Shown here one piece after another: positions 22,633 through 60,179 of a stretch of DNA of 64,000 nt; the first letter of the stretch is position 1; each line of letters starts with the position of its first letter. The stretch comes from Myxococcales bacterium. GTDB lineage: Bacteria > Myxococcota > Myxococcia > Myxococcales > Myxococcaceae. The position numbers were made by a program, and so were the translations under genes. The stretch is from positions 1 through 64,000 of the forward strand of contig JACPVI010000080.1 of NCBI GenBank assembly GCA_016191815.1. Reading direction: 5' to 3'. The notes beneath the pieces were generated by a model, which saw nothing but the letters and a program-made list of their open reading frames with translations, did not search any database and was not told where the DNA came from.

Positions 22633-23931
22633 CTATCGGCCCGTGGCGGCAGTCCGCAGCCTGGCGAGGGCCTCCTCGTGGAGCCGCTCGGCGCGCTCGG
22701 CGCGGATCAGCGGCTCGGCGTAGAGCAGCGTGAGGCTCATCCGCCCTCTGAACGTCTTCGCGACCAGGAACGGCGCGGGCCCGTAGGCCCCCGTGCCGGC
22801 GGCGAAGGAGAAGCCCTCGAGCGCGAACGGCCCCTGCCGAGGCGCGAGCGAGAGCGCACCGACGTTGGTGACCGCCACCGAGCCCCACATCGGGTGGCTC
22901 AACGCGGCTGCGGCAGTCTCGGGCGACAACCGCCTCGGACTCAGCTGGCCCAAGAGGCGGGCTACCGCACATGCGGCGGCCCCTTCGACCTGGGGACGAA
23001 GCGCGGCGCGAACCTCCCTCGCCAGGGCCCAGAAAGAGCCCTGCGGCCGGATGCGGTGGTAGGTCACCGCGGAGCCGACGAAGTATCCGACCGCGTCGCG
23101 AGCCTCCCCCTCGAGGAAGGGCCGCAGGTTCACCGGCGCAAGACAGGAGAGCCGCGCCTCGCCGGTCACCGCCTGGGTGGCCGTCAGCATCGCCGCGGTG
23201 AGCGCTCCCTGCACGGTGGTCTGCTCTTCGCGACAGCGCGACCGCAGGGCCGCCGTCTCCGCGGCAGAGAGCTCTCCCGAGCGAAAGCGGGGGCGCCGCA
23301 CGCCGAGCGCGGCTTCCTCGTCCGCATCGAGCTTTCGCGGGCGCCGGATCGCAAACGAGGCGACCTGCCGCAGCAGCGCCCCCGCTCCTCGGAAGAATCC
23401 GCGGAGGCCGCGGGCTTCCGGCGGGAATAGCGCTTCCAGTGCCCTCACCCGTGCGACCGGCGAAACCACCGGCGCCTTCCCGCTAGCCAGCACCGAAAGG
23501 TCGTCGACCAGGTCGCTGACCGCGCGGACCGCCGAGAAGCCGTCTCCGATGGCGTGGTGGAAGGTGAGCACCACGTCGCTCGCCTCCGTCGATGCAAGCG
23601 ACGACGCGCGCCAGAGCGGCCCCTCCCGCCAGCCGAAGGGCCGTCCCACCTCCTCGGTGGCCTCTCTTCGCCAGTCGTCCGGGTGAGCGCGCCGCAGCAC
23701 GCGCACCGGCGTGGGCGGAGTGCCCTGGAGGGTGAAGTGCGGCCAGCCCTCGGGCGACAGCTCGATCCGCGCCCCCAAGAGAGCGTGCCGCCTCCGCATC
23801 GCGGCCACGGCGCCGCGCAGCCATTCTTCCTCCACGCGCCCGCGCAGGTGAACGGCCACCACGAAGTTGAAGGAGCTGGCCTGGTCCAGACACCAGATGT
23901 TCCGCTCCAGTTTTCCCAACGGCCGATGCAC
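22633..23931 (-). CDS. Condensation-domain / PapA-like acyltransferase
   Basis: A 432-residue enzyme of the CoA-dependent acyltransferase or condensation superfamily. The active-site motif HHAIGDG sits at residues 125-131 (HHxxxDG, with His126 as the base). In the second half the pattern CLAPVNLRPFL and the closing region VTNVGALSLAP fit alcohol acyltransferases and PapA-like enzymes that esterify lipids. It stands alone, not beside a peptide-synthetase gene, which favours lipid or alcohol esterification over peptide assembly. The start is GTG; no strong ribosome-binding site is visible. Confidence 0.8.
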   Translation of the reverse strand: MHRPLGKLERNIWCLDQASSFNFVVAVHLRGRVEEEWLRGAVAAMRRRHALLGARIELSPEGWPHFTLQGTPPTPVRVLRRAHPDDWRREATEEVGRPFGWREGPLWRASSLASTEASDVVLTFHHAIGDGFSAVRAVSDLVDDLSVLASGKAPVVSPVARVRALEALFPPEARGLRGFFRGAGALLRQVASFAIRRPRKLDADEEAALGVRRPRFRSGELSAAETAALRSRCREEQTTVQGALTAAMLTATQAVTGEARLSCLAPVNLRPFLEGEARDAVGYFVGSAVTYHRIRPQGSFWALAREVRAALRPQVEGAAACAVARLLGQLSPRRLSPETAAAALSHPMWGSVAVTNVGALSLAPRQGPFALEGFSFAAGTGAYGPAPFLVAKTFRGRMSLTLLYAEPLIRAERAERLHEEALARLRTAATGR

Positions 23932-24913: not shown

Positions 24914-25762
24914 ATGACAACCTGGTCGCAACACTTCGAGCTCGTCGATCGCCAAGACCTTGCGCCCAAGGTGACGCTCTACCGACTGCGCGCTGCCCAG
25001 GTCGCCACCTCCCGGAAGGCCGGGCAGTTCGTCATCGTCCGGGTCCGCGAGGGCGGCGAGCGCATCCCCCTCACCATCGCCGACGCCGACCCCCAGGCCG
25101 GCACGATCACCCTGGTGGTGCAGGAGGTCGGCAAGACCACCGCCCTGATGACCGGCGTGAAAGTCGGCGAGACCTTCGCGGACGTGGTGGGCCCGCTCGG
25201 CTCGCCCACCCACCTGAAGCGCGTGGGCACCGTGGTGTGCGTGGGCGGCGGCATCGGAATCGCCCCGATCCACCCCATCGCCCAGGCGATGCGCGCCGCC
25301 GGGAACCGGGTCGCCTCGGTATTGGCCGCCCGGGACAAGGACCGGCTCTTCTTCCGCACCGAGATGCGCCGCGCCTCGGACGAGATCCGCATCTGGACCG
25401 ACGACGGCTCCGAGGGGAAGAAGGGGCTCGCCACGGACGCCATCCGCGAGCTTCAGACCGAGCTTGGGCGTATCGACCAACTGGTCGCCATCGGCCCGGT
25501 GCCGATGATGAAGGCCGTCTCCCAGCTCACCCGTTCGCTCGGCATCCCCACTCTGGTCAGCCTCAACCCGGTGATGGTCGACGGCACCGGGATGTGCGGA
25601 GGCTGCCGCGTCACCGTGAACGGCCAGAGCAAGTTCGTCTGCGTCGACGGCCCCGAGTTCGACGGGCACCAGGTCGACTTCGATGAGCTCTCGCGGCGCC
25701 AGGCCCTCTACCGCGAGGACGAGCGGCTGGCCTACGCGCGGCACCAAGAGGGCCCCCGATGA
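24914..25762 (+). CDS. nfnA: NfnA-like ferredoxin:NADP oxidoreductase, small (FAD) subunit
   Basis: A 282-residue cytoplasmic subunit resembling PyrK/SudB/NfnA. The FAD-binding barrel at the start has AGQFVIVRV and RIPLTIADAD. The nucleotide-binding part has VCVGGGIGIAPIHPIAQAM. The C-terminus holds a [2Fe-2S] site in VDGTGMCGGCRVTV and FVCVDGPEF: three cysteines plus a nearby Asp, which suits NfnA, where three Cys and one Asp bind the cluster. With the next gene it would form the enzyme that couples NADH and reduced ferredoxin to NADP reduction, or act as sulfide dehydrogenase. It overlaps the next gene by ATGA. Confidence 0.8.
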   Translation: MTTWSQHFELVDRQDLAPKVTLYRLRAAQVATSRKAGQFVIVRVREGGERIPLTIADADPQAGTITLVVQEVGKTTALMTGVKVGETFADVVGPLGSPTHLKRVGTVVCVGGGIGIAPIHPIAQAMRAAGNRVASVLAARDKDRLFFRTEMRRASDEIRIWTDDGSEGKKGLATDAIRELQTELGRIDQLVAIGPVPMMKAVSQLTRSLGIPTLVSLNPVMVDGTGMCGGCRVTVNGQSKFVCVDGPEFDGHQVDFDELSRRQALYREDERLAYARHQEGPR

Positions 25763-27189
25763 GCGACCGGCCCCCTCCACCCAAGGATCTCAAGCTCCGC
25801 TACAAGACGCCGAGGCAGCAGATGCCCCGGCAGGACGCCGCCGCCCGCGGCCGCAACTTCTTCGAGGTCGCCCTCGGGCTCGCCGAAGAGAGCGCCAAGC
25901 GCGAGGCCTACCGCTGCATCTACTGCAAGGAGCCGGACTGCATCAAAGGTTGCCCGGTGACCATCGACATTCCCGGTTTCTTGCACGAGGTCGAAAAGGG
26001 AGATTTCCGCGCGGGCGTGCGGGTGCTCAAGCGCACCAACCTCCTGCCGGCGATCTGCGGCCGGGTCTGCCCCCAGGAAGAGCAGTGCGAGCTGGTCTGC
26101 AAGGTCGGCAAGGGCAAGAACGGAGTCCCGGTCGCCATCGGCCGGGTAGAGCGCTTCCTCGCCGACTGGGAGCGCGCGAACGGCACCGAGCCCCCTGCGA
26201 TCGCGGCGACCACCGGGAAGAAGGTCGCGGTGGTCGGCTCGGGGCCGGCGGGGCTGACTGCCGCCGCCGACCTCGCCCGGCTCGGCCACCAGGTCACCAT
26301 CTTCGAGGCGCTCCACAAGCCGGGCGGCGTCTTGGTCTACGGCATCCCGGAGTTCCGGCTGCCGAAGGAGATCGTCGCCTACGAGATCGACAACCTCCGG
26401 AAGATGGGAGTGGAGATCGTCTGCAACTTCGTGGTCGGGCTCACCCGCACCGTGGACGAGCTGCTCAGGGAGTTCGACGCCATCTTCCTCGGCACCGGCG
26501 CCGGGCTTCCGTACTTCATGGACCTGCCGGGAGAGAACCTGGGAGGCGTCTACTCCGCCAACGAGTACCTGACCCGGGTGAACCTGATGGGCGCCTTCGA
26601 GCCCTCGAGGAACGACACCCCGGTGGTGCGCGGCAGGAACGTGGTGGTGGTGGGCGGCGGCAACGTGGCGATGGACTCCGCCCGCACCGCGGTGCGCCTG
26701 GGCGCGGAGAAGGTCCGCCTCGTCTACCGGCGCTCCCTCGAGGAGATGCCCGCCCGCGAGGAGGAGATCCACCACGCCCAGGAAGAGGGCATCGACTTCA
26801 CCCTCCTCACCAACCCGGTCCGCTACCTGAGCGACGAGAAGGGCCGGGTGCACGAGGTGGAGTGCCTCCGCATGGAGCTGTCCGAGCCCGGGCCGGACGG
26901 CCGCCGCAAGCCTTTGGAGGTGAAGGGCAGCGAGCACCGCTTCCCGGCGGACACCGTGGTGGTGGCGATCGGCAACGGGCCCAACCCGCTGGTGCCGCGC
27001 TCCACCACGTCGATCGAGACCAGGAAAGGGAAGATCCTGGTCCGCGACGAATCGGGCCGCACCTCGCTCAAGGGCGTGTTCGCCGGGGGAGACATCGTGC
27101 TCGGGGCCGCCACCGTCATCCTGGCCATGGGGGCCGGGCGAAAGGCCGCCGCCTCGATTGACGAGTACCTTCGCACCGGCGTCTGGTAG
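25759..27189 (+). CDS. nfnB: NfnB-like / GltA-type large subunit
   Basis: A 476-residue FAD protein resembling the glutamate-synthase small subunit, SudA and NfnB. The N-terminal domain has the cysteines for two [4Fe-4S] clusters: YRCIYCKEPDCIKGCP and later CGRVCPQEEQCELVCK. The FAD Rossmann motif VAVVGSGPAGLTAAADL begins at about residue 156, and the NADPH motif VVVVGGGNVAMDSAR at about 295. Its partner is the NfnA-like gene, with which it overlaps. There is no large glutamate-synthase subunit beside it, so a stand-alone NfnAB complex is favoured. Do not confuse this with the unrelated gliding-motility glt names. Confidence 0.8.
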   Translation: MSDRPPPPKDLKLRYKTPRQQMPRQDAAARGRNFFEVALGLAEESAKREAYRCIYCKEPDCIKGCPVTIDIPGFLHEVEKGDFRAGVRVLKRTNLLPAICGRVCPQEEQCELVCKVGKGKNGVPVAIGRVERFLADWERANGTEPPAIAATTGKKVAVVGSGPAGLTAAADLARLGHQVTIFEALHKPGGVLVYGIPEFRLPKEIVAYEIDNLRKMGVEIVCNFVVGLTRTVDELLREFDAIFLGTGAGLPYFMDLPGENLGGVYSANEYLTRVNLMGAFEPSRNDTPVVRGRNVVVVGGGNVAMDSARTAVRLGAEKVRLVYRRSLEEMPAREEEIHHAQEEGIDFTLLTNPVRYLSDEKGRVHEVECLRMELSEPGPDGRRKPLEVKGSEHRFPADTVVVAIGNGPNPLVPRSTTSIETRKGKILVRDESGRTSLKGVFAGGDIVLGAATVILAMGAGRKAAASIDEYLRTGVW

Positions 27190-27222: not shown

Positions 27223-28857
27223 ATGCTCGAGACGGTGTCCAAAGGCTTCCGCGCCGCCAAGAACCGCCTGGCGGGGAAGACCGAGATCGGCCCGGAGGCG
27301 GTGGACGAGTCCCTCCGCGACATCCGGGTTTCCCTGCTCGAGGCCGACGTGGCCTTCGAAGTGGTGAAGAAGTTCGTCGCCCGGGTGAGGGAGAAGGCCA
27401 TCGGCGAGGTGGTGAAGACCACCATCACCGACAAGCATGGGCGCCGGATCCGGGTCACGCCGTCGGACCACTTCGTCAAGATCTGCCACGACGAGCTGGA
27501 AGCCCTGATGGGGCCGGTCGACGCCACGCTCAAGCTCAAGCCCAAGGGCCAGGTGAGCGGGGTGATGATGGTGGGCTTGCAGGGCTCCGGGAAAACCACC
27601 ACCGCCGGGAAGCTCGCCAACTACTTCCTCAAGCAGGAGAAGAAGCCCCTGCTGGTCGCGGCGGACATCTACCGGCCCGCGGCGGTGGAACAGCTCCGCG
27701 TCCTGGGCGAGCGGCTGGGAGTGCCGGTGTTCTTCGAGCCGGACACTTCCCCGCCGGAGCTGGCGAAGAAGGGGTACGCGGCGGCGCGGGAGAAGCGCTG
27801 CGACGTGGTGATCATCGACACCGCCGGCCGGCTGGCGATCGACGAGCAGCTGATGCAGGAGCTGGAGGCGATCAAGTCGGCGGTGGCGCCGGACAACGTC
27901 GTGCTGGTGGTGGACGCGATGATCGGCCAGGACTCGGTGCGCACCGCCGCCGAGTTCGACCGCCGGCTCTCTTTGGACGGCTTCATCCTCACCAAGCTCG
28001 ACGGCGACGCGCGCGGCGGGGCGGCGCTCTCCATCAAGGAAGTCACCGGCAAGCCGATCAAGTTCCTCGGCATGGGCGAGGCCCTGGACCGCCTCGAGGA
28101 GTTCCGCCCCGACGGGCTGGCCAGCCGGATCCTCGGCTTCGGCGACATCGTCGGGCTGATGAAGGACTTCGAGGCGGTGGTCGACGAGGAGAAGGCCGAG
28201 GAGGACGCCAAGAAGCTCCTCTCCGGCCGCTTCAACATGCGGGACTTCGTCGAGCAGATCCGCATGGTCCGCAAGATGGGGCCGCTCAAGGACCTGCTCG
28301 AGAAGTTCCCCATCTTCGGGGAGTGGACCGAGCAGCTGAACCCCGACGAGAAGGAGCTGGGGAAGATCGAGGCGCTCTTCGACTCGATGACCGAGAAGGA
28401 GCGGCTGGACCCCTCGCTCGTCGATGACGCGCGGATGAGCCGGATCGCCAAAGGCTCGGGGCGGAAGAAGCACGAGGTGGTCGAGCTGATGCAGAAGTTC
28501 GGGATGATGCAGCAGCTGATGGGCTCGATCGGCCAGAACCCGGGCCTTTTGGGGCGGATCCCCGGCTTCAGGCAGCTCGGGCAGCTCTCCCAGCTCAAGG
28601 GGCTGGACCTCAAGGAGATCTTCGGCAAGGACGCGAAGATGATGGAGCAGGCCCTGGCGCCCGAGCCGATGCAGCTCCCCCAGCTGGCGCCGGGCTACAC
28701 CGCGCCGATGGGGCAGTCGGCCATGGCCCGGGCGCGGCTGATGGGCTACTCCACCTCGCCCCAGGGAAAGAGCAAGACCGACCGCGAACGCGAGGCGCTG
28801 AAGGAGAAGCGCAAGCGCGAGCGGCAGGCGAGGAAGAAGAACCGCAAGCGCAAGTAG
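27223..28857 (+). CDS. ffh: Signal recognition particle protein Ffh
   Basis: A 544-residue GTPase that binds 4.5S RNA and targets membrane-protein ribosomes to FtsY. The N domain (1-105) is followed by the G domain with the P-loop GLQGSGKTTTAGKLA (118-132), the DTAGR box and TKLDGDARGG, then the methionine-rich M domain (about 320-470; KFGMMQQLMG, MMEQAL). Most Ffh proteins have 440-500 residues. The extra length here is mainly a basic C-terminal tail ending KRKRERQARKKNRKRK, as in several deltaproteobacteria-like proteins. It begins 33 bases after nfnB and may share its promoter. Confidence 0.95.
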   Translation: MLETVSKGFRAAKNRLAGKTEIGPEAVDESLRDIRVSLLEADVAFEVVKKFVARVREKAIGEVVKTTITDKHGRRIRVTPSDHFVKICHDELEALMGPVDATLKLKPKGQVSGVMMVGLQGSGKTTTAGKLANYFLKQEKKPLLVAADIYRPAAVEQLRVLGERLGVPVFFEPDTSPPELAKKGYAAAREKRCDVVIIDTAGRLAIDEQLMQELEAIKSAVAPDNVVLVVDAMIGQDSVRTAAEFDRRLSLDGFILTKLDGDARGGAALSIKEVTGKPIKFLGMGEALDRLEEFRPDGLASRILGFGDIVGLMKDFEAVVDEEKAEEDAKKLLSGRFNMRDFVEQIRMVRKMGPLKDLLEKFPIFGEWTEQLNPDEKELGKIEALFDSMTEKERLDPSLVDDARMSRIAKGSGRKKHEVVELMQKFGMMQQLMGSIGQNPGLLGRIPGFRQLGQLSQLKGLDLKEIFGKDAKMMEQALAPEPMQLPQLAPGYTAPMGQSAMARARLMGYSTSPQGKSKTDREREALKEKRKRERQARKKNRKRK

Positions 28858-28915: not shown

Positions 28916-30046
28916 TCAGCTCGCCGGGGGCTTCGCCTCGCGCCGCCGCCGGGGCACCACCAGCCCGCGCGCGAGGCGCCGGAGCACCTGCCGCCGCTGC
29001 CGCTCCTTGTAGCGCTCGTGGGAGTTCTCCCCCACCTCGTTCTCCATCGCCGTCTGCTCGTCGCAGATCTGGAGCTCGCAAAGGGCGAAGACGATGCGGC
29101 TCTTGCGCGGCCGGTGGTCCTGCTCCGGCCGGGGGAGGTAGGCGTCGAGCCGGATGGGCACGTCGACCACGAAGTTCAGGATCCGGTAGCCGACCCCCGA
29201 GAAGCGGTTGCCCGGGCGCCGCCGGAGCCGGTCCTCGTAATCCATGTCCAGGTGCAGCTGCTCGGAGTAGTGCCGGAAGTGGGGGTGCTGCTCGAGCAGC
29301 CCCTGGAAGGACAAGAGCGAATTCTCCGTCTGTCCCGGCACCACGAAGTTGAACGGGAAGAGCCGCTGGGTGAGGAAGTAGAGCACCGGGAGGATGTCCT
29401 CCCGGGTGCGCGTCACCAGCCGGAAGCGGGTGCGGTCGTAGATCTGCGCCGCCAGCGTGTCCTTCTTGGCGAGCAGCTTGGTGATGACCGACTCGCGGGT
29501 CTTGATCGAGTCGGTGAACTCCACCACCGGCAGGCCCTTCTCCCGCATCTCCTCTGCCACCGCCATCACCTTCTCGGTCACCAGTTGCGCCAGCTCGGCC
29601 TCCGAGGCGGCGATGCGGAAGAGGAGATCCCGCCCCTCGATGTGCTGGATGACGTGCATCACCTTCAGCACCACGCAGGCGATCTTGCGGTACCTCTTCG
29701 GCTCCTTCGCGCCCGAGGCGTAGAGGAAGAGATCGTGGATCTCCTTCGGCTGGGCCACTGCCTCCGCCACCCGGTAGTTGAAGCTCCGCCGCAGGTACTC
29801 CACCGCATCCGAGAGCACCACCCGGGCCCACTGCTCGTCGTACGGATTGGAGGGGTCGATCTGGCAGAGCCTGAGGAAGCGGTCGACCTCCTCCCGAGTC
29901 ATGAAGTGCAGCCGCCGCCACTCGATCACCGAGCCGCCGCGGAGGATGAGGCGGACTCGCTCCAGCTCCTTGAGCCCCATCTGCTGCACCGTCCGCACGG
30001 GCAGGTCGGGCAGCCTCGGCTGGAGCGGATTGGCGAGCACCTTCAT
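28916..30046 (-). CDS. RelA/SpoT-synthetase-like protein
   Basis: The most likely start is the ATG at 30046 (376 residues), because a terminator lies just upstream; a TTG at 30088 is also in frame. The middle and C-terminal part lines up with RelA/SpoT (p)ppGpp synthetase domains. SVITKLLAKKDTLAAQIYDRTRFRLV (residues 186-211, cited by position) corresponds to the SIWRKM...DVRAVRIV region and keeps the catalytic Asp (D204). GYRIL (286-290) stands for the GYxSIH motif, with the histidine missing. ELQICDEQTAMENEVG (324-339) with SHERYK (342-347) stands for EIQIRT...HWKYK, with the catalytic Glu324 kept but RT replaced by CD. Possible alternatives are a (p)ppGpp-like, NMP-transferring or inactive regulator. 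The family looks myxobacteria-specific to me. The gene converges on ffh. Confidence 0.65.
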   Translation of the reverse strand: MKVLANPLQPRLPDLPVRTVQQMGLKELERVRLILRGGSVIEWRRLHFMTREEVDRFLRLCQIDPSNPYDEQWARVVLSDAVEYLRRSFNYRVAEAVAQPKEIHDLFLYASGAKEPKRYRKIACVVLKVMHVIQHIEGRDLLFRIAASEAELAQLVTEKVMAVAEEMREKGLPVVEFTDSIKTRESVITKLLAKKDTLAAQIYDRTRFRLVTRTREDILPVLYFLTQRLFPFNFVVPGQTENSLLSFQGLLEQHPHFRHYSEQLHLDMDYEDRLRRRPGNRFSGVGYRILNFVVDVPIRLDAYLPRPEQDHRPRKSRIVFALCELQICDEQTAMENEVGENSHERYKERQRRQVLRRLARGLVVPRRRREAKPPAS

Positions 30047-30145: not shown

Positions 30146-31213
30146 CTAGTTGGCCGAGATGGTCGAGCAGACCTCGTTGCCGTCGACGAAGTGCAGCGCC
30201 GCGGTGTAGCCGGAGGTCGAGGTGGAGCAGAAGTTCACGTAGAAGACCGTGTTCTTCCCCCCGTTGGTGGTGTTCACGCACTGGATGTCGCCCGCGCCCG
30301 AGGTGACTTCGTTCCCCTGCGGGTCGACGAGATGGAGCTTGGCGCGCATCGAGCTCTCCGGAGCGCCCGCCGCCGCCCCCGGGTTGGTGCAGCTACCCGC
30401 CGGGAAGCCGCCGGCCGGGTCGTACGCCTCGATCTTCGCCTTGTACCGGTTCGGTCCAGGCGCGCCGGAGCAGAAGCCGGAAGCGACGGTGTACGACTCC
30501 TTGAGGACGTTGTGGATCACCGCTCCGTTCTTCCCGGGGCCCCAGCTGATGCCGTGGGTGCTGCCGGTGAAGCCCGAGCAGGCCGCCTTGGCGACCTCGG
30601 AGCAGCTCGTGCCGGAGCAGAACTGGCCGTAGGTGCAGGCGTCAGGCTGCGGGTTGGTGGAGACGCAAGCCTTGGGCGCCTCGCAGACGCCGGTGGCGAA
30701 GTTGCAGACCTTCCCGGTGCCGCAGGTGCCCTGGCCGCACTTGTTCACGCAGGCCGGCGGGCTGGCCGAGGTGTCGCAGACCTGGGTGCCGGCGCACGCC
30801 GGGCTGCAGGTCGTCGCGGCAGTCTTGCACTGCCCATTCTCGCACTTGCGGCCGGTGCCGCAGGCGGCGTCGGTCGAGCAGGCCACCACGCAGACCTTGC
30901 TCTCCACCGAGCACACCGCCGAGCTGCCCAGGCTGCCGCCCTTGCAGAGCTGATCGGTGGCGCACCGGCAGACCTTGGTGGTGCCGCCATCCACGCCGAC
31001 GCCTACCAGCGTGCCGCAGTCCTTGGCGCTGTCCGGGCAGTCGGCCCCGGCGCTACAAGTTCTCACGCACACCTTCTCCACCGGGTGACAGATCTCGTTG
31101 GTCGCGCATGCGGCGCAACCGGTGGGCGGCGTTCCGTCGTCCGGGCCGCAGCCGACAAACCACAGCGCCAGGGCCGCCGACGAGACGGCCAGACCGATCC
31201 TCTTGAGCTGCAT
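30146..31213 (-). CDS. Cysteine-rich lipoprotein
   Basis: A 355-residue lipoprotein. GGGAGG lies upstream of the chosen ATG. The signal peptide ends ALWFVGC, so Cys22 is lipidated. Residues 30-200 contain about 35 cysteines in short repeated steps (CxxxExC-type, such as NEICHPVEKVC, GTGKVCNFATGVC), typical of myxobacterial surface lipoproteins. The last 150 residues are a beta-rich domain with NRYKAKIEAYDPAGG and a closing NEVCSTISAN. No catalytic motif is seen. It lies 273 bases downstream of gltJ, on the same strand, with two hairpins in the gap. Confidence 0.65.
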   Translation of the reverse strand: MQLKRIGLAVSSAALALWFVGCGPDDGTPPTGCAACATNEICHPVEKVCVRTCSAGADCPDSAKDCGTLVGVGVDGGTTKVCRCATDQLCKGGSLGSSAVCSVESKVCVVACSTDAACGTGRKCENGQCKTAATTCSPACAGTQVCDTSASPPACVNKCGQGTCGTGKVCNFATGVCEAPKACVSTNPQPDACTYGQFCSGTSCSEVAKAACSGFTGSTHGISWGPGKNGAVIHNVLKESYTVASGFCSGAPGPNRYKAKIEAYDPAGGFPAGSCTNPGAAAGAPESSMRAKLHLVDPQGNEVTSGAGDIQCVNTTNGGKNTVFYVNFCSTSTSGYTAALHFVDGNEVCSTISAN

Positions 31214-31261
31214 CGTTCCTCCCTTCGAATCCGGGCCGGCCCAGGCCGAGGGCCAGCCGAA

Positions 31262-31326
31262 TGACCCCACGGCAAGCGGGGTCAGCGTTTAGCCCTTCGA
31301 GATCCGGCGTGTCAACGAAAGTTGAC
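31262..31326. other. Two short hairpins between gltJ and the lipoprotein gene
   Basis: TGACCCC and GGGGTCA (31262-31284, nine-base loop) form one palindrome. GTCAAC-GAAA-GTTGAC (31311-31326) forms a second with a GNRA tetraloop. They lie in the 273-base gap that follows gltJ on its strand, so they may end gltJ transcription or hold operators for the lipoprotein gene. Neither has a T-run. Confidence 0.4.
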
Positions 31327-31486: not shown

Positions 31487-33526
31487 CTAGAACTTGAAGG
31501 GGAAGGTGACCGGATCCCCCGCCTTCTTGTGCTTGGGGAAATTCCAGCTCTTCACCAGACCGCCGATGCAGGCAGCCATGTAGGTCGCCTTGAACTCCTG
31601 CGACACCACCGAGACGTTGGAGGTGCGCCCGCTCGGCTGCACAGTCCAGCGCATCACCAGCGTGCCCGAGACTCCAGGCTCCTTCTTCCGGTGCTCCTCG
31701 GCGCACCTTGCCAGCGCCGACCGGTTGGAGAGCACCACCTGCATGATGTCCGACTGGCCGAGCGACTCGGGGACGTCTCCGCCGCCGCCGGGCTCGGGCG
31801 GAACCCAGACCTTCCGGGAAGGCTTCTCCTCCTTGGTCTTGGCCTTCGGCTCCGGCTTGGAAGTCCCCCCGAACTCCCGCGCGAAGTCGTCGTCGTCTCC
31901 GCCCACCGGCTCCTCGATCGGCTTGGGCGGCTTTCGATCCGCCGCGCTATCGCTGCTGCTCGATCGATCCGGCTTCTCCGTCCGCTCGGTGCGCTCGCGG
32001 CGGTCCACCCCGCCGATGCGCGTGGGCTTCGACCTCACGCCGGAACCAGTCTCCCTCGAGGTGACTCCCTCGATCTTGCTCGGCGCCGCGGGCGCCGACG
32101 GAGCAGGTGCCGCAGCCGCCGCCGGAGCCGAGGGAGCAGCCGCCGCGGGAGCCGCGGCCGCCGGCTGGCTGGGAGCGGCCGGCGACGCAGGCTGCGCCGC
32201 AGAGGCAGGGTGAGGCGCCGCCACCGGCACCGGCTGAGGCTGCGGGCGCAACAGCAGCACGAGGATGACCGTGATCAGCGCGATCAAGAGCACCCCGCCC
32301 CCCACCGCGAACCCGACGATGAGCCCGGTGCGCGAAGGCGGCTTGTAGGTGGTGAAGCCGGGCGAGGTCTGGAACCCCGCCATCGGGTAGTGGCTCGGCA
32401 TCCGGGCCCGAGGCTCGGTGTCCTCGCGCATCGCCGGCGCGCGCGCCACCGCCCCGTTCGACTTCCCGTTGGAGGCCGGCTTCTCCTCGAGCGGTGGCAG
32501 GTCCAACAGCCCGTGGCTCGGGGCGGGCTCCTCGGGGGGCGGCGGCGGAGCCTTGGGAGCCGGCTTGGTGAGGGCCTCGATCTCCTCCTGGACCAGCGAG
32601 GCCAGCGCGGAGGCGGCCGAAGGCTTCCAGCCCCCCGAGGTATCCTCCACCGGCGCGGCGGCCAGCGGCACCTGCACCTCGGATCTCACCGCCTGCCCTA
32701 CCCCTCCCGCGTTGAAGGCGGACTCCACCGGCACGCTCACCACCGGAGCCACCGTCGCGGGCGCCACCATCACCGGCTTGGCCGGACGAGGCGCCAGCAC
32801 CGAACCCAGCTCGCCGACCTCCGAAAGCGGCATCCAGTCGGAGAAGCCCGCCCGCCAGCACAAGGAGTCGGGGCCGATCTCGCCCTTGTTCCAGTGGTCC
32901 TTGAGCTTGTCCATCGACATCGGCCCGACCTGCTTGTCGTCGATGGCCACGAACCAGTCGTGCTGGGCCTCGCCGTTCTTCGGCTTGGCGCCTTCGGAAG
33001 GAGCGGCGCCGGATTCCCGGGCGAGCTTCTTGACCGTCTCCGCGTCCAGCACGCGGGTGCTCATCCGGTCGTCGTCTTCATCGATGCCCAACGCCCCGGG
33101 AGGGCTGGCCGCCCCATTGCCCGGCTCCGGCGGCACGGTGTGCGCTCCGGAGTTGAGCACCTGATCGAACACCGCGCCGATCTCGTCCTCGCCCACGCCC
33201 CCCAAGAGCCGGTTCGCCTCCTGCCGCTTACCGGCGGGCGCACGAGGCGCATCGCCAGGGTGGGTGGCGTCCAGGTCCGAGCTCGCAGCTCCCCCCTGCT
33301 GCTCGAAGGGGTGCTGCATCACCTGGGTGGCGCCCTCGTCCTCGGCCTCCTTGGGCGGCGGAGGTGGCTTCGCCGCGTCGATCACCGGCATCGGAGCCGC
33401 CGCCTCCGGCCTCCGGACCAGGATCACATAGCCACACTTCTTACAGCGGACCTTGACGCCCTTGGCCCCGACCTTCTCGTCGGAGATCATGTACTGCGCG
33501 CGGCAGCTGTCGCAGACGAAGCGCAT
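31487..33526 (-). CDS. gltJ: Gliding motility protein GltJ (AgmX)
   Basis: A 679-residue inner-membrane component of the gliding machinery. At the N-terminus is a zinc ribbon with Cys5, Cys8, Cys28 and Cys31. A GYF_2 domain follows at about 190-240 (DWFVAIDDKQVGPMS, FSDWMPL). Next come a proline-rich cytoplasmic linker, one membrane segment at 401-426, a Pro/Ala-rich periplasmic linker and a TonB-like C-terminal domain from about 590, ending VTFPFKF. In M. xanthus the ribbon and GYF domains bind the polarity switch proteins MglA and MglB and so control assembly of focal adhesions. It lies 185 bases after the stop of gltI and is the last gene of the cluster. Confidence 0.9.
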   Translation of the reverse strand: MRFVCDSCRAQYMISDEKVGAKGVKVRCKKCGYVILVRRPEAAAPMPVIDAAKPPPPPKEAEDEGATQVMQHPFEQQGGAASSDLDATHPGDAPRAPAGKRQEANRLLGGVGEDEIGAVFDQVLNSGAHTVPPEPGNGAASPPGALGIDEDDDRMSTRVLDAETVKKLARESGAAPSEGAKPKNGEAQHDWFVAIDDKQVGPMSMDKLKDHWNKGEIGPDSLCWRAGFSDWMPLSEVGELGSVLAPRPAKPVMVAPATVAPVVSVPVESAFNAGGVGQAVRSEVQVPLAAAPVEDTSGGWKPSAASALASLVQEEIEALTKPAPKAPPPPPEEPAPSHGLLDLPPLEEKPASNGKSNGAVARAPAMREDTEPRARMPSHYPMAGFQTSPGFTTYKPPSRTGLIVGFAVGGGVLLIALITVILVLLLRPQPQPVPVAAPHPASAAQPASPAAPSQPAAAAPAAAAPSAPAAAAAPAPSAPAAPSKIEGVTSRETGSGVRSKPTRIGGVDRRERTERTEKPDRSSSSDSAADRKPPKPIEEPVGGDDDDFAREFGGTSKPEPKAKTKEEKPSRKVWVPPEPGGGGDVPESLGQSDIMQVVLSNRSALARCAEEHRKKEPGVSGTLVMRWTVQPSGRTSNVSVVSQEFKATYMAACIGGLVKSWNFPKHKKAGDPVTFPFKF

Positions 33527-56349: not shown

Positions 56350-59300
56350 TCAGATCGGCTCGGCCTCGTCGGAGGGCTCAGAGTCCTTGGTCTTCGGCTG
56401 CTTCCCCTTCACCGCCGGCGGAGGCGCCTCTTCTTCCTCGCGCGGCGGCCGGTCCTCGATCACCTCGCGGGCCACGTCCTGGCCTTTCGGCCTCTTGAGG
56501 TCCTGCCGCATCTCCTCCAGGCGCTCCCTGGACACCACCGGGACCGGCTGCACGGAGACCAGGATGTCGCCGCCGATGGCCTGCCGCTTGGCCTCGGCCT
56601 TCAGCTCCACCGTCTCCTCGGACATCTTGGGGAACTGCTCCGGCCGGTAGTTTTCCCGCAGCTGCTGGTAGGCGAGGTTGGTGCACTCGTTGAACACCGA
56701 CAGCTCCTGGCTCTTGGTGACCGCCGAGGCGAACGCCTCCGCCGCCTTGTCCTTGATCGGCTGGGCCTGCTGCTCCAGCTGGATGCGGAGCTCGGTCAGC
56801 AGCTCTTCGGGCATCCCCTTTGGAGTGGGTGCGTTGGTGAGCGACTTGGCGAAGTGGTCGTAGGCCAGGCCGATCTTGTGCAGGGCGCAGATCGCCGGAT
56901 CCGCGGACTTGTAACCCACGGTGACGGTGTAGAGCTTCTGGATCCCCTCCAGCGCCTTCGCCTTCTCCTTCACCGAGGTCTTGAACTCGTTCACGTTCTG
57001 GAGCTTGGTCCAGCGGAGCTTGAGGCCGGCGTACTTGCGGTACTCGTCCTCGCTGGTGACGAAGTGCGACCGCGCCACCGCGTCCAGCGCGGTGATCTCC
57101 AGCGCCTTCTTCGTCTTCGAAGGCAGCTTGTCGTAGTAGGACCAGATCCGCTCGTAGATGCGCCGGGCGGCCTTGGCGTTCTTCTGCCTGTCCTCGTAGA
57201 TCGAGGCGATCCGGCCCTCGGAGGTCAGCACCTTGTTCGGGTCCTTGTACTTCTTCTCGTATTCCTCGAGCTGCTTCATCGCCTTGCCGTAGACGCCGTT
57301 CTTCTCGTGCAGGTCGGCGATGGAGAGGAACACCTTCTCGGCGTCCGGCGAGTCCGGCCACAGCTCGAGGTACCGCTCGCGGTTTCTGAGCGCCTGCTTG
57401 TACTGGCCCAGCCCGTCGCGGAAGACCCCGGCGTTGAAGAGGGAGATCTGCGCCTTGCTCTCCTCCCACACCTGGGCGGCGGTGGGCGCCTTCGGCTCCA
57501 CCTTGCCCTTCTTCGCCGGCTTCTTCCCCTTGGGCGCCTTGCCGGTGCTGCGCTCGAACTCCCGGGCGTAGGCCTCGTAGTAGTTGGAGGCGTCCTCGAA
57601 GTCGGCGATCGCCTCGTAGCCCTCGGCCAGCGCGTAGACCGTCTGGGGCACGAACTGGGACTTGGGGTAGGACTGCACCAGGCGCTTGCGCGTCTCGATC
57701 GCCTTGTCCAGCATCCGGGCGTTGAAGAAGTCGATCGCCGCGTTGAACAGCGCCTTGTCGGCCAGCTCGGACTGGGGGAACTCCTGGACGAAGCCGATGT
57801 ACGCCTCGGCGGCCTTGGCGTAGTCCTTCTTCGCCTCGAGCTGGTTCACCAGCTTGAAGGCCGACTGCTCGATCAGCTTGGCGAGGTCCTCGCGGAACTT
57901 GCCCACCGCCAGCTTCTCGGAGGCGTAGAACTTCCGCGCCCACTCGTTCACCTTCGCCCAGTCCTGCTGGAGGTTGAACGAGTCCAGGACCAGGTTGGCG
58001 GCGATCTCCCCCGCGCGGTCGCCGTTCTCGAACTTGTAATCGGGGAAGTCGAGCGCGATGTGCGAGAAGCGCTGGACCGCTTCGTCCAGGTAGTTGTGGT
58101 CGTAGTAGATCTTCCCCGCCTTGAAGTTGATCTCCACCACCTTCTCGCCCTCGGGCACGTACTTCACGTAACGCTCGCAGGCCTCGAGCAGGGCTTGCTT
58201 CTCGGGAGAGATCTTCAGCTTCTTGCGGATGTCGGTGTTGGGCTCGGCCTTGAGCTTGCCGCTCTCCTCGGCCTTCTTGACCACCGCGTCGTAGGCCAGG
58301 ATGGCGTTGTAGGCGGCGTTCACCATCCACTTGCCGGGGCACTTGTGGGCGGTCTTCTTGTCCTTGTCCTCGCCCTCCTCCTCTTTCTCGCCCTTCTTTT
58401 TCTTGGCGGGCTTCCGGCTCTCCACCTCGGCCTTCTGGCCCTTGTCGGCGCAAGATGCGTCACGCATCAGCACCAGGGTGTACTGCTCGGCCGCCCGGGC
58501 GTAGTTCTGCAGGTTGTCGTTCAGAAGCTCCGCCCAGAAGAAGCGCAGGGAGTAGGACTTCGGGTTGTCCGGGAAGAGGGTGAGGTAATCGGCGTACACC
58601 TCGTTGGCGAAGCCGAAGGTCTCCTCGTCGCGGGTCTTCTTGCCCTCGTTGTGCCAGTTCACCGCCAGGTTGGAGATGGTGCGCTCTGACAGCTCCCGCG
58701 CCTCGTCCAGGGCCTTCTTTGCCTTCTCGTCCTTGTTCCCGACCCCGGACTTCACGACGTCGTCCATCACCTTCACCAGCCGGCGGACCTGCTCCACCGT
58801 CATCCGCTTGTTGCCGGCGCGAAGGACGCAGTCGACGATCTTCCCCTGGAAGCCGGGCGCCTCGGGGGAGAGCGGCTTCTCCTTGATCAGCATGTTGAAG
58901 GCGAGCGCCGCTTCCTTGTCCTTGCCGTCCTCGTAGTAGAGCGAGGCGAGGTTCTTCATCATCGTCCAGCGGTCCTCTTCCTTGGAGGCGAGCCTGGCGA
59001 ACTCGGAGCGCGCCTCGGCGGGCGAGCCGCCGCACCGGGCGAAGGAGCGCACGAAGTCGTTCCGCGCCTCGCGGACCAGGCCCGCCTTCCCGCCTTTGGG
59101 GCCGCCGCCGCCCTCGGCGACCTCCTTGCCGGCGATCTCCGCGTAGAGGACCACCGACTTGAACATGTCCATCGCCTTCTGGCAGTCGGTGAGGTTGTAG
59201 TAGCACCACCCCTGCTTGTAGAGAGCGAAGCCGTAGACCGCGCTGGAGGGATCGGAGGCGGCCTTCTTGTACGAATCCAGGGCCTTCTCCAGCATCTCCC

Positions 59301-60003
59301 GCTTGCCCTTGGAGCTGTTGAAGTAGTACTCGCCGAAGGCCAGGTGCGCATCGGAGAGGTACCTGGACTTGGGGTACTTCTCGATCAGCCGCTTGTAGGC
59401 GACCAGCGCCTTGCGGTCCTCGCCCGCCTCCATCAGGTTGTGGCCGAGGAAGTAGAGCACCTCGTCGGAGCGCTCGAAGTCCTTGTACTGCTGAACGATC
59501 TTCGAGTACTCCTCAACCGCGAGCCGGGAGTACTCCTTGCTCTTCTCGAGCAGCTCCTGCTTCTCCGCCTTGGACCGCTCCATCGCCGCCTGGTCCTTGC
59601 GGTTCATCGCCTGGATGTACTCGTCGTCCTTCCGGTTGGCCTCGAAGAAGAAGAACTTCGACTCTTCCCAATAGAGCTCGCCCAGCCGGAACAGCAGCTT
59701 GGGCATCTCTCCACGCTCGTCCCTGGTCTCCACCGTGTAAGCGATGATCCTCTTGAGGTCGTCGATCTGCGAGCGCCGCTTGCTGGCGACCTGGATCTCC
59801 ACCTGCAAGCGGAACTGGTCGTACTGCAGCGCCGGCGCCGCCTCGCCGCTCGTCTCCTTCTTTCGGGTCAGGTCTCCCGCCAGAGACTTGTCCGGCGCGG
59901 CCGAGGTCTCCTTCTTGCCGAGATCGGCGTCCCGGGCGGCCTTCTTCTCCTGCGCGGTGGAAGCGAAACTAAAGACCAGCGTGGCAACGAACAATCGGCG
60001 CAT
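56350..60003 (-). CDS. gltD: Large TPR gliding motility protein GltD (AgmU)
   Basis: 1217 residues, almost exactly the length of M. xanthus AgmU. AAGGAAAG lies upstream of the ATG. A signal peptide (LFVATLVFSFASTAQ) directs it to the periplasm. The body is helical TPR-like repeats, with YKRLIEKYPKSRYLSDAHLAFGEYYF and AYIGFVQEFPQSELADKALFNA as clear units. A long Lys/Glu stretch lies near residue 520 (KKKKGEKEEEGED). The C-terminus is Pro/Glu-rich. It is the first gene of the glt cluster; a 176-base gap before it contains the likely promoter, but I see no firm box. Confidence 0.9.
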   Translation of the reverse strand: MRRLFVATLVFSFASTAQEKKAARDADLGKKETSAAPDKSLAGDLTRKKETSGEAAPALQYDQFRLQVEIQVASKRRSQIDDLKRIIAYTVETRDERGEMPKLLFRLGELYWEESKFFFFEANRKDDEYIQAMNRKDQAAMERSKAEKQELLEKSKEYSRLAVEEYSKIVQQYKDFERSDEVLYFLGHNLMEAGEDRKALVAYKRLIEKYPKSRYLSDAHLAFGEYYFNSSKGKREMLEKALDSYKKAASDPSSAVYGFALYKQGWCYYNLTDCQKAMDMFKSVVLYAEIAGKEVAEGGGGPKGGKAGLVREARNDFVRSFARCGGSPAEARSEFARLASKEEDRWTMMKNLASLYYEDGKDKEAALAFNMLIKEKPLSPEAPGFQGKIVDCVLRAGNKRMTVEQVRRLVKVMDDVVKSGVGNKDEKAKKALDEARELSERTISNLAVNWHNEGKKTRDEETFGFANEVYADYLTLFPDNPKSYSLRFFWAELLNDNLQNYARAAEQYTLVLMRDASCADKGQKAEVESRKPAKKKKGEKEEEGEDKDKKTAHKCPGKWMVNAAYNAILAYDAVVKKAEESGKLKAEPNTDIRKKLKISPEKQALLEACERYVKYVPEGEKVVEINFKAGKIYYDHNYLDEAVQRFSHIALDFPDYKFENGDRAGEIAANLVLDSFNLQQDWAKVNEWARKFYASEKLAVGKFREDLAKLIEQSAFKLVNQLEAKKDYAKAAEAYIGFVQEFPQSELADKALFNAAIDFFNARMLDKAIETRKRLVQSYPKSQFVPQTVYALAEGYEAIADFEDASNYYEAYAREFERSTGKAPKGKKPAKKGKVEPKAPTAAQVWEESKAQISLFNAGVFRDGLGQYKQALRNRERYLELWPDSPDAEKVFLSIADLHEKNGVYGKAMKQLEEYEKKYKDPNKVLTSEGRIASIYEDRQKNAKAARRIYERIWSYYDKLPSKTKKALEITALDAVARSHFVTSEDEYRKYAGLKLRWTKLQNVNEFKTSVKEKAKALEGIQKLYTVTVGYKSADPAICALHKIGLAYDHFAKSLTNAPTPKGMPEELLTELRIQLEQQAQPIKDKAAEAFASAVTKSQELSVFNECTNLAYQQLRENYRPEQFPKMSEETVELKAEAKRQAIGGDILVSVQPVPVVSRERLEEMRQDLKRPKGQDVAREVIEDRPPREEEEAPPPAVKGKQPKTKDSEPSDEAEPI

Positions 60004-60179
60004 GGCTTTCCTTGTGAAGTCCTTCTGGCGCGGCACCGCATCCACCGTGCGCGGAGTCACCTGCCCTCTCCCTCGCACCCATCCGAGCAAGTAGGCAGGA
60101 CTCCTTGGGAATTTTTCCCTTTGGCGGACGAAATCATGCGCGCAAAGGGGCGCGGAGGTCAACCGGACAAACGGCCGCG

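What the first reader, a model, noticed from the sequence alone, without database searches (positions are those of the whole stretch)
28916..30046. Divergent RelA/SpoT-like nucleotidyltransferase opposite ffh
Motifs over 160 residues follow the RelA/SpoT synthetase order: SxxxK, DxxxxR, GYR, ELQI and SHERYK. The key Asp and Glu remain, but the histidine of GYxSIH and the RT of EIQIRT are changed. It lacks the hydrolase, TGS and ACT domains. This could be a new small-alarmone enzyme or toxin-like ppApp-type synthetase.
Basis: partly seen in the sequence, partly recalled or inferred. Interest (0 to 1): 0.65.

Follow-up and report, generated by a model that had tools for sequence, protein, structure and literature searches.

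The report
Divergent alarmone-synthetase-like enzyme beside gliding genes
This myxobacterial gene encodes an uncharacterised protein whose predicted shape and key residues match the enzymes that make bacterial 'alarm' nucleotides, but with a changed substrate pocket and an extra front domain, and it often sits beside genes of the gliding-motility machine.

Summary
The ORF at 28916-30046 (-) is a real 376-aa gene of NCBIfam's unnamed family TIGR04552 (1.8e-119), nearly universal and usually single-copy in the window's order of Myxococcota. Its C-terminal half (about 148-353) is predicted to have the RelA/SpoT synthetase fold. Foldseek's 50 listed PDB hits are all RSH synthetases; structural and sequence registers agree, placing K182, S186, K190, D204, R209, E324 on RelSeq K243, S247, K251, D264, R269, E323. 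Over 148 homologues K182, K190, D204, E324 and Q326 never vary. The acceptor- and adenine-side signature is rewritten: R241 to Ser, His of GYxSIH to Asn, IRT to I-x-Asp. Residues 1-147 form a helical domain with no matched fold; HD, TGS and ACT are absent. Most likely it is an active ATP pyrophosphokinase with a non-canonical acceptor. A toxin reading is poorly supported: no antitoxin-like partner, conserved chromosomal position. New here: the gene ends the minus-strand glt (gliding) cluster; a GltJ-type gene lies upstream, same strand, in 48/65 loci of the order and 5/15 outside it. No paper found links the family to RSH enzymes, but the 2011 subgroup 'bdRel' could not be excluded. Product and function are untested.

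The parts
28916..30046 (-). TIGR04552-family gene, 376 aa, divergent RelA/SpoT-synthetase-fold protein
29606..30046 (-). N-terminal all-helical domain (residues 1-147), no matched fold; conserved S39, C124, L127, K128, H131, H135
28988..29605 (-). synthetase-fold domain (residues 148-353)
29477..29503 (-). K182-x3-S186-x3-K190, the equivalent of RelSeq K243/S247/K251 (ATP-phosphate side)
29420..29437 (-). D204-RTRF-R209, the equivalent of RelSeq D264 and R269
29210..29317 (-). variable-length loop, about residues 244-279, low confidence in the model; partly missing in one genus
29174..29188 (-). Y287-R-I-L-N291, the equivalent of Y308-Q-S-I-H312 (His replaced by Asn)
29060..29077 (-). E324-L-Q326-I-C-D329, the equivalent of E323-I-Q325-I-R-T (RT replaced by x-Asp)
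30146..31270 (-). Cys-rich lipoprotein-like gene, same strand, directly upstream in Myxococcaceae relatives
31487..33526 (-). gltJ (zinc ribbon, GYF, TonB-like C-terminus), gliding-motility gene; conserved upstream neighbour
   Evidence: NF033761 9.9e-192
27223..28857 (+). ffh (SRP54), convergent neighbour

Best explanation
The protein is a cytoplasmic pyrophosphokinase built on the RelA/SpoT synthetase fold. It keeps the ATP-phosphate-binding lysines and the metal and catalytic acids, so it should move the beta,gamma-pyrophosphate of ATP onto a hydroxyl, as (p)ppGpp synthetases do. Its adenine-side Arg and its acceptor-side signature are rewritten, so the acceptor is probably not bound as GDP/GTP is in Rel; it may be another nucleotide or a nucleotide-bearing RNA end. 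The N-terminal helical domain probably recognises the substrate or regulates the enzyme. It is a conserved chromosomal, housekeeping-type gene, often downstream of the glt gliding/envelope-complex genes, and not a mobile toxin. Shown here by computation: family, predicted fold, register, invariance, distribution, synteny. Inferred: catalysis, acceptor, role.
For: Foldseek: all 50 listed PDB hits are RSH synthetases, best S. aureus RelP 2.9e-6. VIA-align: ranks 1-24 are all RSH synthetases, Z 13.5 to 8.7; best non-RSH is DNA polymerase lambda, Z 8.7. Structural end points give offset 61 to RelSeq at residue 148 and -1 at 342, equal to the sequence offsets at K182/K243 and E324/E323; E. coli RelA likewise (+72, +11). 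A profile of members from several phyla finds only YwaC and RelSeq in the PDB at E <= 1, with motifs in register. hhalign with Rel proteins gives the same register, P 0.0016. K182, K190, D204, E324, Q326, D329 and Y346 are invariant in 148 sequences, S186 and R209 hold in 146. Two distant members keep R-x-K and D-x-x-G-x-R. Distribution: 37/40 relatives, 157/195 Myxococcota genomes, all or most genomes of four small sets from other phyla.
Against: Sequence similarity is below Pfam's gathering score for the window protein and for the first cross-phylum member scanned (24.7 bits). The canonical R241, H312 and IRT positions are changed, so activity could be altered or lost. No activity, ligand or phenotype data exist in what I could read.
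Confidence: 0.6

Rival explanations
1. It is simply a (p)ppGpp (or ppGpp/ppApp) small alarmone synthetase with an unusual sequence; guanosine recognition has been re-solved with other residues.
For: Synthetase fold and catalytic core kept; the position of RelSeq Y308 is Tyr or Phe in all 148 sequences. The own genome has only one other RSH, a long Rel of 772 aa.
Against: His of GYxSIH, IRT and R241 are lost family-wide, and a different loop with invariant N280 and nearly invariant S283 precedes the Tyr.
Confidence: 0.25
2. It pyrophosphorylates an RNA 3' end (tRNA CCA), like FaRel2, PhRel2 or CapRel, in a regulated non-toxic way.
For: The RSH fold is known to do this (PMC11559606); a basic C-terminal tail and an extra domain could bind RNA (inference). 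CapRel is among the VIA matches (Z 8.2).
Against: No antitoxin-like partner; no PADLOC match; CapRel matches less well than Rel or SAS proteins.
Confidence: 0.12
3. It is a catalytically dead RSH-fold protein that binds a nucleotide or alarmone and acts as a sensor or scaffold, perhaps for the Glt complex.
For: Rewritten acceptor motifs; synteny with gltJ.
Against: The ATP and metal residues are invariant across phyla, which is unexpected for a pseudoenzyme.
Confidence: 0.12
4. It is a toxin of a toxin-antitoxin or secreted (ppApp-type) system.
For: Some RSH-fold proteins are such toxins (PMC11782079 abstract).
Against: Usually single-copy, near-universal and syntenic; same-strand neighbours are GltJ or a 374-aa lipoprotein-like gene, not a small antitoxin.
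Confidence: 0.04

Closest known systems
NCBIfam TIGR04552 / TIGR04562 ('TIGR04552 family protein')
   Same: The window protein is a full-length member of both overlapping models.
   Different: The models carry no function. The one paper found that names the family lists it only as an indel in evolved Bdellovibrio sp. NC01 (PMC9888234).
Small alarmone synthetases RelP and RelQ (SAS2/YwaC, SAS1/YjbM)
   Same: Predicted synthetase fold over about 145 residues, Z about 9.5-12; ATP lysines, Asp and Glu in the same places.
   Different: 376 aa instead of about 200; added N-terminal domain; R-x-K, GYxSIH and IRT changed; below the Pfam cut-off.
Long RSH (Rel, RelA, RelSeq synthetase domain)
   Same: Highest structural scores, Z 13.5-12, in the same register.
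   Different: No HD hydrolase, TGS or ACT; about 20% identity or less; no match of the N-terminal domain to the HD domain in the searches done.
toxSAS (FaRel2, CapRel, Tas1)
   Same: Same fold superfamily; CapRel Z 8.2.
   Different: No antitoxin neighbour, not sporadic, weaker structural match.
bdRel of Atkinson et al. 2011 (beta/delta-proteobacterial SAS subgroup)
   Same: Partly overlapping taxa (PMC3153485).
   Different: Could not be compared: its sequences are in supplements I could not open; identity with TIGR04552 is not excluded.

Membership tests
TIGR04552 (NCBIfam) | whole-protein score over the curated cut-off (125 bits) | tested here: met
   399 bits over model positions 3-352 of 352
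RelA/SpoT synthetase (RSH SYNTH) fold | predicted fold of the synthetase domain | tested here: met
   Foldseek's 50 listed hits all RSH; VIA Z 13.5-8.7 for ranks 1-24, all RSH
RelA/SpoT synthetase (RSH SYNTH) fold | catalytic Asp and Glu (RelSeq D264, E323) and ATP lysines K243/K251 | tested here: met
   D204, E324, K182, K190 in 148/148 sequences and in register
Pfam PF04607 RelA_SpoT | score at or over the gathering score of 27 bits | tested here: not met
   20.3 bits; a cross-phylum member reaches 24.7
canonical (p)ppGpp synthetase | GYxSIH and E[IV]QIRT guanosine-side motifs and R241 of RxK | tested here: not met
   H to Asn in 129/148 (His in 4), RT to x-Asp in all, R to Ser/Asn/Gly in 146/148
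canonical (p)ppGpp synthetase | makes (p)ppGpp | not testable with these tools
   needs an enzyme assay
long RSH | HD hydrolase, TGS and ACT domains | tested here: not met
   no such Pfam matches
toxSAS toxin-antitoxin module | adjacent antitoxin gene | tested here: not met
   neighbours are a lipoprotein-like gene, gltJ and convergent ffh
bdRel SAS subgroup (Atkinson 2011) | match to the subgroup model or sequences | not tested
   sequences only in supplementary files, which could not be opened

The most novel reading that the evidence does not exclude
A previously unrecognised RSH-superfamily branch, core to Myxococcota and some allied phyla, that makes a non-guanosine pyrophosphorylated signal (or marks an RNA) and is wired to the Glt gliding/envelope machinery, giving that machine its own nucleotide signal.
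Probability: 0.12. Interest if true: 0.85.

Novelty: new variant of a known kind. Interest (0 to 1): 0.55.

Why it matters
If active, it adds a second synthetase-fold enzyme with an altered acceptor site to myxobacteria that otherwise mostly show one long Rel. The acceptor and product can be found by a standard labelled-ATP assay. The conserved neighbourhood with gltJ makes a link between nucleotide signalling and the gliding/envelope complex directly testable by deletion in laboratory Myxococcus xanthus.

Tried and rejected
Single-sequence PDB search found nothing useful. PHROGs and PADLOC gave no meaningful match for the protein. Viral structures gave only weak RelA/SpoT-like matches, none at E <= 0.001. 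The N-terminal domain predicted alone (pLDDT 78) had no PDB match at E <= 0.001 and a best VIA Z of 4.7: unassigned, not proven new. A degenerate HD domain was considered for it; the H-D pair in 'IHDLFL' is not conserved in the alignment and no HD model matched. An ffh functional link was considered: ffh is the convergent neighbour in the order but was not found in the loci examined outside it, and on the opposite strand it cannot share a transcript. Obligate coupling to gltJ was rejected: family f7 members mostly have the gene without a GltJ match, and family f11 has GltJ-like genes mostly without it. Literature searches for the family gave one incidental paper; 'bdRel' could not be resolved.

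Full report
WHAT IS THERE. The ORF at 28916-30046 on the minus strand encodes 376 aa. The gene is real: 37 of 40 related genomes hold a same-frame homologue, up to 79% identical, and 157 of 195 Myxococcota genomes match NCBIfam TIGR04552, with none in 14 control genomes. A scan of GTDB genomes found 308 encoding loci, including Myxococcus, Corallococcus, Archangium and Anaeromyxobacter. The window protein scores 399 bits against TIGR04552 and 354 against the sister model TIGR04562. Neither model names a function. The family also occurs in a few other phyla: 7/9, 2/2, 28/28 and 1/1 genomes of four small phylum-level sets, and is annotated in Bdellovibrio sp. NC01 (PMC9888234).

IS IT AN RSH SYNTHETASE FOLD? 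Pfam RelA_SpoT is hit below its cut-off (20.3 against 27 bits). It is, however, the only family shared by homologues: 20 of 29 diverse members, best 7.2e-6, and 6 of 6 cross-phylum members. A profile of the diverse members finds YwaC first in the PDB (E 0.06). A cross-phylum profile finds only YwaC (0.0097) and RelSeq (0.037) at E <= 1, with the K-S-K, Asp and Glu-Gln-Ile...His-x-x-Tyr-Lys motifs in register.

STRUCTURE. The AlphaFold2 model from 54 window and locus sequences has pLDDT 85.1 and pTM 0.83. Foldseek's 50 listed PDB hits are all RSH synthetases, best 2.9e-6. VIA-align gives RelA Z 13.5 and RelSeq Z 13.2, rmsd about 3 A over about 130 residues, spanning model 148-342; the best unrelated nucleotidyltransferase is DNA polymerase lambda at Z 8.7. 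The aligned end points imply offsets of 61 (residue 148) and -1 (residue 342) to RelSeq. The same offsets follow from pairing K182 with K243 and E324 with E323, using numbering. E. coli RelA gives the equally consistent +72 and +11. D204 pairs with D264 and R209 with R269. hhalign against myxobacterial Rel proteins gives the same register with P 0.0016. This is a register argument; distances in the model were not measured.

WHAT IS KEPT AND WHAT IS CHANGED. Over 148 sequences, K182, K190, D204, N242, N280, E324, Q326, D329, Y346 and R357 never vary; S186 and R209 hold in 146; Y287 is Tyr or Phe. Changed positions: R241 is Ser, Asn or Gly (Arg in 2); the His of GYxSIH is Asn in 129, Gln in 13, His in 4; the RT of IRT is a hydrophobic residue plus an invariant Asp. 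Two distant members, L170 and L171, keep R-x-K and a D-x-x-G-x-R motif and so bridge to canonical RSHs. The assignment of these positions to ATP, metal or guanosine contacts is established knowledge of RelSeq, RelP and RelQ, not something tested here. A loop at about 244-279 varies in length and is low-confidence in the model.

N-TERMINAL DOMAIN. Residues 1-147 are all-helical and well conserved (S39 148/148, L127 148/148, C124 147, H135 144, H131 143). Predicted alone the domain has no PDB match at E <= 0.001 and a best Z of 4.7. No Pfam domain matches over its cut-off. It is left unassigned; substrate recognition or regulation is inference.

NEIGHBOURHOOD. The gene is convergent with ffh, a pairing conserved in the order. 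More telling, the window holds the glt gliding cluster on the minus strand: GltE (9.4e-172) and GltG (2.6e-296), a 4096-aa TPR protein resembling GltI in size and place (PMC3169522), GltJ (9.9e-192), a Cys-rich lipoprotein-like gene, then this gene. A zinc-ribbon/GYF GltJ-type gene lies upstream on the same strand in 48 of 65 loci of the order with enough flank and in 5 of 15 outside it, and in none of 5 from other phyla. The five outside the order (L062, L065, L066, L068, L069) are directly adjacent: the TIGR04552 match begins 38-77 nt after the stop of the GltJ-type gene. An independent family search shows the same, e.g. G033, G067, G006, G027 and G050. Related species share synteny by descent, so the counts are not independent events. 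The link is not obligate: most members of family f7 have the gene without a GltJ match, and family f11 mostly the reverse.

HOW IT LIKELY WORKS. An intact ATP/metal core with a rewritten acceptor side argues for pyrophosphate transfer to a non-canonical acceptor. The own genome has one other RSH, a long Rel of 772 aa with HD and synthetase motifs. A toxin is unlikely because the gene is near-universal in its order, usually single-copy, syntenic and without an antitoxin-like partner. A small indel in the gene arose in one evolved Bdellovibrio population and some reduced genomes lack the gene, so it is not essential everywhere.

LIMITS. No experiment bears on activity. The 2011 RSH subgroup bdRel could be the same family; its sequences could not be read. 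Only open-licence papers were searched. By Pfam threshold and motif tests the protein should not be filed as a canonical RSH or SAS; it is a divergent protein with the RSH synthetase fold that probably works like one.

Noticed in passing
31487-60162 (-): The window holds the glt G1 gliding cluster: GltJ, GltG and GltE by NCBIfam, plus a 4096-aa TPR protein (GltI-like); the 56350-60162 TPR protein may be GltD.
   Followed up: partly
30146-31270 (-): Cys-rich lipoprotein-like protein without Pfam or NCBIfam match between gltJ and the RSH-like gene; similar genes lie in the same place in Myxococcaceae relatives.
   Followed up: partly
22633-23931 (-): Condensation/PapA-type acyltransferase-like gene (Pfam PapA_C 2.7e-15).
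   Followed up: no
25759-27189 (+): Glutamate-synthase-small-subunit-like FAD oxidoreductase directly before ffh.
   Followed up: no
genomes G094 and G096 (genus g16): Three to four TIGR04552 matches per genome: possible paralogues, split genes or contamination.
   Followed up: no
genomes G038, G078, G079, G080 (genus g38): TIGR04552 found as two matched pieces; in G038 in one open frame of 339 aa lacking the loop around residues 246-275.
   Followed up: no
genomes G019, G153, G154 (genus g20): Reduced genomes of the same family lack TIGR04552; G019 and G154 keep a RelA_SpoT match (G153 not searched for it).
   Followed up: partly
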